Source: Meghimatium bilineatum
Taxonomy: Eukaryota > Mollusca > Gastropoda > Stylommatophora > Philomycidae
Assembly: GCA_034231615.1 (NCBI GenBank)
Contig: CM067322.1
Span: 60,507,245-60,571,244 of the forward strand
Length of the DNA: 64,000 nucleotides
Reading direction: 5' to 3'
Below are positions 29,701 through 32,700 of this stretch, piece after piece (the stretch's first letter is position 1; each line of letters starts with the position of its first letter). The notes beneath the pieces were generated by a model. That model ran no database searches. It was not told where the DNA came from and saw only the letters and a list, made by a program, of their open reading frames with translations. Both the position numbers and the translations under genes were made by a program.

Positions 29701-32700
29701 GTTGACGTAATCCATTCATTGAATAGGCTTGGAATTTACCATAATGGATGATGCTATCGTTGCAGCCAATCTTTGTCTCAGAGATGGTACTGAGTGAATT
29801 AATCAGATATCTCAGAATACTCTGGTACCTAGTGGTTGCAGGTTTTATGAGGAATGCCTATGAGCAAATGTCACACTGCATTATTCTGGATATTGTATTT
29901 TATGTGAATATTGGTAGGGAGGGGCAAATGGAAGAAATGACCTTGCATCTCACCATTGCTAAAGTTTGTGTTATTTTTCCTTTAGCAATATTTCACTTGA
30001 CCCTTCATTCCTATAATAACAGGATCCCACAGTACTATTACTGGTATTATTTTTTTATATGTTGACCTATAAATTGGTTCCTGATTTTAGTCACATTTTG
30101 GACATTAAAGTACATCCTCTGCATATATACAGATTGACATACGAGGCGTGTTCAAATGAAAACGGGACTTGTTACACCACGCGTGATAGAGCGCACTGAT
30201 ATTGATGACATTTTGCACTAGTAATGAGTATCCAATAATTTACATACGGTCACGTGTTCATCTTCCCAGCATGCATATGTGCTGCAGAAGACTGTTAACA
30301 ATATGGCGGGTGTGATTCCGAACCCGTCCAAAGTGAATCAGCGTGCTGTGATCCAGTTTCTTTCATTTGAAGGATGTCAAGCAGTAGACATTCATCGGAG
30401 AATGAAGGCAGCATATGGTGACAAATGTTTGTCGAGGACCAGAGTGATGGAGTGGGTGCGTATGTTTAAAGACGGACGTGAGTTAACGGCAGATCTTGCA
30501 CGGCCAGGTCAGGCGCATATTGTTGCAACAGAAGAAGCCATAGCCGTGCTTGATAAAGCAGTACTGACTGACCGTCGTCGGAGCATTCGTTCGCTTGCAG
30601 AAGAATTCCATATGTCAATTGGGACAGCCCACATGGATGTTCGGAAGAAATTGAACTATCGGAAGGTGTGTTCACAGTGGGTCCCACGGATGTTGACAGA
30701 CCACCATAAGGAAGAACGGATGGGGTGGAGTTTGAACCACCTGATGCGTTACAGGGCAGAGGGTGATGCATTTCTGTTGAGCATTGTGGCAGGTGATGAA
30801 TCGTGGTGCCACCACTATGAACCGAGCAGCAAAATTGACAGCATGCAATGGAAACATCCAGGTTCACCAAAACCCAAAAAATTCAAGACACAGGTTTCTG
30901 CTGGGAAGGTTATGGTGACTGCATTTTTTGACCATGAAGGGCTTTTGTTGACTGATTTTAAGGAACCTGGTGTCAACATCAATGCCGCCCATTATAAAGA
31001 CACTTTAGACAAGCTGCATAAGGCCATCAAGGCTAAGCGACCAGGCAGACTTTCTCAAGGTGTGATTCTTCTCCACGACAACGCTCGTCCGCACGTCACA
31101 AAAATTGTGCAGGAAACATTGGCAAAGAAGAATTGGGAAGTTCTTCATCACCCAGCCTATAGTCCCGATTTATCCCCGTGTGATTTCCATTTGTTCGGAC
31201 CGTTGAAGAAAGCACTAAAGGGACAGCGATTCAACAGCGACGCAGACGTGAAGACAGCGGTGACCACATGGTTCAGAGAACAGCCACGCAACTTTTTCTC
31301 GGACGGCATTCGACGTCTACCTAAACAGTGGGATGCTTGCCTAAATGCATACGGAGATTTTTTCTGATGAACCCAGGTGCATTCTTATTCACAAGTGGTT
31401 GCTTTGTTCAATTCCGTTGAAAATATTAAATTGCGTATGATACTTTTTAAATAAATCCACAAGTCCCGTTTTCATTTGAACACGCCTCGTATATTCTGAA
31501 ATATACAGTATTCTTTATGTGATATTTAATACTATTTGCAGAAAACCATACTGTTTTCATGCAAAATGTACCTTCAAAGTACATTTGAAGGCTGATGAGC
31601 AAGAGGAAGACATCATTATCATGTGCCATTCTTGATAGTAGAAGCGGTCATTGATCTCCACAACACTCTATCCATTGTATTACATTTCAGTTCAACTGCT
31701 GACTCTCTACCATGTTATGATGTCAAAACTAACTTGTATTTTTTCCTTTCGCAATCCTTTGTCTCTTTTTTCCTCAATTTTTTCAGTTTTTTCTTACATT
31801 GTATTCCACACCTCCTCTCCTCATAATGTTGCTTAAAATTGTGACCTGTTTTATTATGATTCTTCTGAATTCTTTATTAGAAACTAGCTTCACTGCATGT
31901 GGGGCATTCCCATAAGTGTTCTGTTTCAGCAGCCATATCAGTGTATGTAGACTCCGGTAGAGTTCCGGTCAGGTGTTGATTGCGTGATCTTCGGAGCCTT
32001 CCAAAATATTTAATTTTCCTACCTTCCATTCTAGATACTCCCATTTCAAACATTCTCTGTATGTGTACATTCTCAGAGAATTATTATGATGTTGATAAGT
32101 AATTTCCTTTTTTGTGACTGGTCTCTCCTAGTACCTCCTCATGTTATTCTAGTTGTATATATGACTTTCAGCATTCTTATGAAGAACCAAATCCGTCTGA
32201 CCTCTAAATTCCTACTTGGTGTTTATTTATTGTTGAATTAAGTTTTTATTATTAATTATTAATATTAATAATGCATATTATTATATATAATTACATATAT
32301 ACATTAACTACCATGCTTTAAACATAGACAGTTTCAAAATCCCTGAACTACGCTATGCAGACGACAATGTGCTTCTTTTAAATGATATAAAAGGATTGGA
32401 ACAACTAATCAAGAACACAAAGAAATACAGCGAATCCTAAAAATTATATTTTTACGCACAGAAAAACATAAATCATGTCAACAGATATAACACAACTACC
32501 GAAAATCAGAATAGAAAATACAGAGATAGAATGTTTGGATAAATTTGAATACTTAGGAGCACACATCAGCGGCCTAATGTTTACTGTTATTCGATTGTCC
32601 ATGTTAAAGGCATGCAATCATATGGAATGTGTGGTCAGAAGGGGTTAACATGGATACCACCAAATATTTGTATGTTTGTATGTGATTGGTTGTCTATATA

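What the first reader, a model, noticed from the sequence alone, without database searches (positions are those of the whole stretch)
30142..31489. Mariner with perfect 31-bp ends and an open DD34D transposase
Both inverted repeats are identical, the TA duplication is intact and the 354-residue transposase has no break. Every other element in the window is decayed. Its GC content is well above the host intron. A recent arrival, perhaps by horizontal transfer, and possible current activity are inferred.
Basis: partly seen in the sequence, partly recalled or inferred. Interest (0 to 1): 0.72.

Follow-up and report, generated by a model that had tools for sequence, protein, structure and literature searches.

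The report
Young mariner transposon burst in slug
This is one of several hundred nearly identical full-length copies of a cut-and-paste "jumping gene" that spread very recently through the genome of a land slug, together with many more shortened copies that appear to ride on its enzyme; the element type is ordinary, but the burst is unusually fresh and the shortened copies fall into oddly regular sizes.

Summary
In detail: window 30142-31489 is a complete mariner (perfect 31-bp ends, TA on both sides, open 354-codon DD34D transposase). It is not a lone copy. The host, identified from assembly statistics as the land slug Meghimatium bilineatum, holds 1,643 exact left-end and 1,780 exact right-end tags of this family. 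In a positional sample, 57 full-length copies differ from the majority sequence by 0.23% on average and 43 of 57 keep an open transposase. About 80% of sized copies (68 of 85) are shorter derivatives, apparently mobilised in trans; two deletions were copied 226 and 200 times, and a near-palindromic derivative with two right ends 73 times. Derivative sizes cluster at 704-732 and 865-932 bp although breakpoints differ, repeating a pattern reported in Drosophila and Rhodnius. No older relatives turned up, so recent arrival is the simplest reading, but donor and horizontal transfer could not be tested. The window copy has two amino-acid changes from the majority, so its own activity is uncertain. 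Copies differ from one another less than the animal's two alleles reportedly do, so many insertions should be polymorphic. New member of a known kind.

The parts
30142..31489 (+). complete mariner element, 1348 bp
30140..30141 (.). TA target duplication, left
31490..31491 (.). TA target duplication, right
30142..30172 (+). left terminal inverted repeat, 31 bp
   Evidence: 31-mer searches of the genome
31459..31489 (-). right terminal inverted repeat, 31 bp, identical to the left
30303..31367 (+). transposase gene, 354 codons plus stop; differs from the family majority by V112D and A266T
30795..30797 (+). codon of catalytic-triad aspartate D165
   Evidence: position; role by homology with Mos1
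31077..31079 (+). codon of catalytic-triad aspartate D259
   Evidence: position; role by homology with Mos1
31182..31184 (+). codon of catalytic-triad aspartate D294 (DD34D spacing)
   Evidence: position; role by homology with Mos1
26448..26546 (+). likely exon of the host TTLL gene upstream of the insertion (weak match)
   Evidence: Pfam TTL 17.4 bits, E=0.0028, below the cut-off of 20.1
32967..33146 (+). exon of the host TTLL-type tubulin polyglutamylase gene downstream of the insertion
   Evidence: Pfam TTL 84.8 and 87.3 bits; best PDB match TTLL6, E=8e-18
25778..26159 (-). repeat (LINE-like by my reading) that serves as a related empty site for another copy of the family (L013); not part of the element
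   Evidence: 315 of 386 positions identical across the joined insertion point of L013

Best explanation
The element is an autonomous DD34D mariner. Its transposase binds the 31-bp ends, cuts the element out and inserts it at TA (mechanism known for mariner, inferred here). The family entered, or re-entered, the slug germ line very recently and amplified in one burst from essentially one sequence. Excision gaps repaired imperfectly produced internal deletions and one head-to-head rearrangement. Because their ends were intact, these defective copies were moved by the transposase of full-length copies and now outnumber them. Shown: copy numbers, near-identity, TA flanks, related empty sites, shared deletion junctions, open frames. 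Inferred: mobilisation in trans, gap-repair origin, entry by horizontal transfer (about 0.6 on its own).
For: 1,643 left-end and 1,780 right-end tags. 57 full-length copies of a positional sample: mean 0.23% from the majority, pairwise 0.45%, twice the former, as expected of a star-like burst; 43 of 57 open. TA on both sides in 80 of 80 and 46 of 49 copies with both termini intact, in the two samples. Related empty site in the window itself. Single deletion junctions present 226 and 200 times. Deletion classes A, B and D have consensus sequences identical to the full-length majority and private divergence of 0.19-0.20%, the same age as the full-length copies. Microhomology of 0-5 bp at the 15 of 20 junctions that could be resolved. 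98 of the 100 listed matches to a degenerate transposase motif are this family; the other 2 are distant relics.
Against: No transcription, excision or polymorphism data. The mean divergence comes from places that hold an exact internal 32-base tag, which trims the most diverged copies. In the first positional sample only 7 of 11 full-length frames were open. The window copy has two amino-acid changes. No donor was found; only viral contigs and prokaryote genomes could be scanned. Other subfamilies of mariner would escape the motif pattern.
Confidence: 0.87

Rival explanations
1. Reawakening: the family was inherited vertically at very low copy number and one surviving copy amplified recently, without transfer between species.
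For: The burst itself would look the same; no donor was found, and no other animal genome was searched.
Against: 98 of the 100 listed matches (of 1,077) to the degenerate motif are this young family and the other two are distant relics; end tags allowing 3 mismatches number 3,649 against 3,328 for an exact, one-base-shifted tag, so there is no visible older tail. GC is about 10 points above the flanks.
Confidence: 0.3
2. The size clusters of the derivatives reflect breakpoint hotspots or deletion mechanics, not a constraint on spreading.
For: Some 3' breakpoints recur (near 741, 883-887 and 1147, each in two structures), and Rhodnius Rpmar17 shows 900-950 bp copies that its authors think did not derive from each other by transposition.
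Against: Left breakpoints range from 237 to 702 within the 865-932 class while total size hardly changes. Ten of 18 distinct structures fall in one 68-bp window (0 of 20,000 uniform simulations; two of the 18 sizes, those of L050 and L057, were estimated from incomplete or further altered copies).
Confidence: 0.25
3. Assembly duplication or contamination rather than real copies.
For: Three pairs of fetched copies share their flanks (L024/L025, L060/L063, L066/L067), which may be segmental duplication or unpurged haplotypes.
Against: The other sampled copies have their own flanks with TA, apart from low-complexity flanks shared by four, and the palindromic class alone lies on 23 of 25 numbered chromosomes.
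Confidence: 0.02

Closest known systems
Mos1 of Drosophila mauritiana (PDB 3hos) and the SETMAR transposase domain
   Same: Same DD34D transposase family, aligned over residues 5-354 with E=3.2e-49 for Mos1; TA target; about 1.3 kb
   Different: Different subfamily by its terminal repeats; the deletion lineages described here are not part of that comparison
Rpmar1 and the 'drosophila' subfamily of mariner (PMC4678618, passages and part of one section read; PMC4161770, passages and two sections read)
   Same: Nearest terminal repeat of 17 compared, 23 of 29 positions; this subfamily is reported to spawn deleted and end-rearranged lineages of about 900-970 bp
   Different: Mollusc host; transposase not placed on a tree; a second size mode at 704-732 bp instead of 467-560 bp; 31-bp repeat against 29
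Rhodnius Rpmar49 and Rpmar17, end-rearranged mariner lineages
   Same: 5' part replaced by the 3' part, giving two right ends and long inverted repeats, then amplified (Rpmar49, 13 copies)
   Different: Here 73 copies share one junction and the inverted arms reach about 398 bp against 221 bp in Rpmar49
Mariner-2_DF of the fire ant (PMC6307670, passages)
   Same: Recent burst with many identical copies, nucleotide diversity 0.005, 857 copies, horizontal transfer inferred
   Different: There expression and polymorphism were shown; here neither could be tested

Membership tests
mariner (DD34D) family | D,D,D triad with 34 residues between the last two | tested here: met
mariner (DD34D) family | transposase homologous to known mariners over its whole length | tested here: met
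   Mos1 E=3.2e-49, residues 5-354; Pfam Transposase_1 and DDE_3
mariner (DD34D) family | terminal inverted repeats of about 30 bp and TA duplication | tested here: met
   80 of 80 and 46 of 49 copies with both termini
mariner 'drosophila' subfamily | transposase groups with the subfamily in a tree | not tested
   no representative transposases were at hand
mariner 'drosophila' subfamily | similar terminal repeats | tested here: inconclusive
   best of 17 published repeats, 23 of 29; second best 21 of 29, from a lineage listed as 'New'
amplified non-autonomous (MITE-like) mariner lineages | one deletion junction shared by several independent insertions | tested here: met
   exact junction counts 226, 200 and 73; fetched members have different flanks except L060/L063 and L066/L067
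amplified non-autonomous (MITE-like) mariner lineages | moved by the transposase of full-length copies | not testable with these tools
   inferred from identical ends and equal age
recently horizontally transferred element | near-identical copies in a distant species and absence in close relatives | not testable with these tools
   no animal genomes besides the own one; viral and prokaryote scans found no relative
currently active transposon | transcription, excision or new insertions observed | not testable with these tools
   one assembled genome only; 9 of the 39 best-scoring 1,348-bp copies and 2 of the 57 sampled ones are identical to the majority

The most novel reading that the evidence does not exclude
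A defective mariner spreads only if its length falls into discrete windows (about 704-732 and 865-932 bp, perhaps also about 1,065 bp), roughly 170-180 bp apart. Pairing of the two ends in the cell would then be governed by a chromatin-scale spacing such as nucleosome repeats, not by where the breaks happened. A period of 182 bp fits 24 distinct sizes better than any of 2,000 uniform simulations. Against it: two tight clusters alone would give such a fit, some of the 24 sizes are estimates, other sizes (1,007, 1,040, 1,232, 1,257 bp) also occur, and the full length of 1,348 bp does not fit.
Probability: 0.1. Interest if true: 0.65.

Novelty: new member of a known kind. Interest (0 to 1): 0.38.

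Why it matters
It is a very fresh mariner invasion in a land slug, with autonomous copies, several deletion lineages and an end-duplicated palindrome of about the same age. Copies differ from one another by 0.45%, less than the 1.05% heterozygosity published for the sequenced animal (PMC10770140), so many insertions should still be segregating; spread, silencing and possible transfer could then be watched in living populations. The size clusters repeat, in another phylum, a constraint that was called unexpected in flies, and this data set is large enough to test its cause.

Tried and rejected
Horizontal transfer by direct search: one scan each of viral contigs and of prokaryote genomes with the transposase found no relative. 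Full-text search for 27 bases of the terminal repeat: 0 papers; 'Meghimatium' with 'mariner': 0 papers; searches on mariner with bivalves, gastropods and slugs listed no paper on this element in the rows I saw. My first guess at a bivalve host was wrong; the order of a mitochondrial fragment and then the assembly statistics settled it. The excess of silent changes in the 39 best-scoring copies (15 of 28 coding changes, p=0.002) was not seen in 7 of the first sampled copies (4 of 14) and was weak in the larger sample (51 of 150, p=0.03), so I do not build on it. The junction script failed on 4 of 20 structures that carry further changes (L057, L131, L152, L155) and is doubtful for a fifth (L137); their printed overlaps mean nothing. 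Of six palindrome loci analysed, one (L168) could not be delimited and one (L166) was delimited wrongly on its left side. A note of mine says 11-12 of the best-scoring copies are identical; the right number is 9 of 39. No structure prediction was run.

Full report
What is there. Window 30142-31489 is a complete mariner: perfect 31-bp inverted repeats, TA on both sides, a 354-codon open transposase with D165, D259 and D294 (93 and 34 residues between them), GC 46.1% against 35.8% and 33.5% in the flanks. The transposase aligns with Mos1 over residues 5-354 (E=3.2e-49) and passes the cut-offs of Pfam Transposase_1 and DDE_3. It lies in an intron of a TTLL-type tubulin polyglutamylase gene, on the same strand: matches at window 32967-33146 and 38518-38631 and a weak one at 26448-26546. 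The exon for the profile stretch between the first two matches was not located, so which intron it is stays open.

Host. The genome has 1,612,235,226 bases in 32 contigs. Meghimatium bilineatum is published with 25 pseudo-chromosomes and 7 unanchored scaffolds, 1.61 Gb, scaffold N50 68.08 Mb (PMC10770140: abstract, passages and part 1 of 2 of the Methods read). The 18 contig lengths that I saw agree with the published chromosomes of the same number within 0.03 Mb, among them 135.71 (C1), 68.08 (C14) and 105.18 Mb (C25). A nuclear mitochondrial fragment with the order nad4-trnI-nad2-trnK-cox1 agrees with a land snail or slug by my recall. The window is on chromosome 25.

Copy number. A 31-mer of the end occurs 1,659 + 1,669 times, 0 in the control; a tag shifted by one base, with up to 3 mismatches, 1,828 + 1,821 times. 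Tags just inside the ends: 1,643 left and 1,780 right. The excess of 137 right ends is close to twice 73, the number of palindromic copies with two right ends and no left end. An internal tag that most derivatives lack occurs 394 times. The first 83 of these places in genome order (14 of the C1 sample, 60 newly fetched, 9 fetched before) hold 57 full-length elements, 1 truncated one and 25 deleted or rearranged ones. By proportion that makes about 270 full-length and about 200 open-frame copies (extrapolated).

Age. The 40 copies scored were chosen by similarity: 39 are 1,348 bp long and differ by 0.87 substitutions on average from the majority, 9 are identical to it, and 1 of 39 has a broken frame. 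The fairer sample is the 57 full-length copies: mean 0.23% from the majority (bootstrap 0.19-0.27%), median 0.15%, maximum 0.75%, pairwise 0.45%, 2 identical to the majority; 43 of 57 have at least 350 codons open. In the first, smaller sample 7 of 11 were open. The published k-mer heterozygosity is 1.05%, more than twice the distance between copies; it follows, by inference, that many insertions should be polymorphic.

The window copy. It differs from the majority at element positions 496, 557 and 957, which gives V112D and A266T. Position 266 is an alanine in Mos1 too (alignment). Its own activity is uncertain, although the family was active recently.

Derivatives. The first 100 end places listed on C1 (0-48.6 Mb) resolve into 58 elements, 55 fetched for this purpose and 3 fetched before; 11 are full-length, and two are cut by assembly gaps. 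Pairing 93 of the 100 listed left tags with the 100 listed right tags (C1, 0-77.5 Mb) gave 85 sizes: 17 of 1,340-1,351 bp, 44 of 865-932, 17 of 704-732, 4 of 1,021-1,069, 1 of 1,291 and 2 of 149; none of 733-864 or 933-1,020. Such pairing cannot see the palindromic class. Classes A, B and D have consensus sequences identical to the full-length majority and private divergence of 0.19-0.20%, so they arose from the same sequence and spread at about the same time. Exact junctions occur 226 (A), 200 (B) and 73 (P) times. At the 15 of 20 junctions that could be resolved there are 0-5 bp of microhomology, which fits abortive gap repair or end joining.

The palindromic class. P is 398 bp from the right end followed by 520 bp of the right end in the other direction, 906 bp (with a 9-bp loss) or 915 bp in all. 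The four copies that I could delimit have four different flanks, all TA/TA; one strand folds into a long hairpin. It lies on 23 of the 25 numbered chromosomes, not on C5 and C13 (complete list of 73). Rearrangements of this kind are known: Rhodnius Rpmar49 and Rpmar17 replaced their 5' part by the 3' part, and seven Drosophila lineages did the reverse. Here it shows that two right ends suffice for transposition. Whether its hairpin silences the family, as Mu killer does in maize (PMC3440606, start of abstract in the listing), is unknown.

Sizes. Of 18 distinct derivative structures in the C1 sample (two sizes estimated), 10 fall within 68 bp and 5 within 21 bp; uniform simulations reach the first in 0 of 20,000 and the second in 0.4%. 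Of 27 short Drosophila lineages, 23 measured 900-970 bp and 4 measured 467-560 bp, and the authors suspected a constraint on size or structure; Rhodnius shows 900-950 bp. The slug repeats the first mode, slightly shorter. A 182-bp period fits but is only a lead. Among places chosen by the internal tag, sizes between 1,007 and 1,291 bp are more spread out.

Proof of transposition. The joined flanks of copy L013 match a related repeat in this window (25778-26159) at 315 of 386 positions straight across the insertion point; the target bases themselves differ there by two substitutions and a one-base gap. TA flanks occur in 80 of 80 and 46 of 49 copies with both termini in the two samples.

Arrival. 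Of the 100 listed matches (of 1,077) to a degenerate HDNARPHV pattern, 96 are identical to the family, 2 differ by one base and 2 are distant relics. No older population is visible with these tags. Recent horizontal transfer is the simplest reading, reawakening of a rare resident the main rival; neither was tested against other animals.

Classification. It meets the defining features of DD34D mariner that could be tested. Its ends are nearest to Rpmar1 of the 'drosophila' subfamily among 17 published repeats (23 of 29), a subfamily reported to spawn deleted lineages, but membership of the subfamily was not tested with the transposase.

Verdict. Real, very young, and a new member of a well-known kind. 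The surprising parts are the freshness of the burst and the regular sizes of its passengers, not the element itself.

Noticed in passing
L009 (match at G000:C2:121989805-121990428): Nuclear copy of mitochondrial DNA with the order nad4-trnI-nad2-trnK-cox1; it helped to place the host.
   Followed up: partly
L066 and L067 (C1:11.82 and 11.95 Mb): Two 149-bp miniature derivatives (ends 1-83 and 1281-1348 of the element) with the same flanks, so probably one insertion that was duplicated with its surroundings.
   Followed up: no
L024/L025 (C21:13.99 Mb) and L060/L063 (C1:5.57 and 6.02 Mb): Pairs of copies with identical flanks: segmental duplication after insertion, or haplotypes left in the assembly.
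   Followed up: no
window 48561-48977 and 49165-49746, minus strand: Open stretches that look like the end of a LINE with an RNase H domain (by eye and recall, not searched).
   Followed up: no
L169 and L170 (C1:63.81 and 126.28 Mb): Decayed transposase relics that share little more than the HDNARPHV motif with this family.
   Followed up: partly
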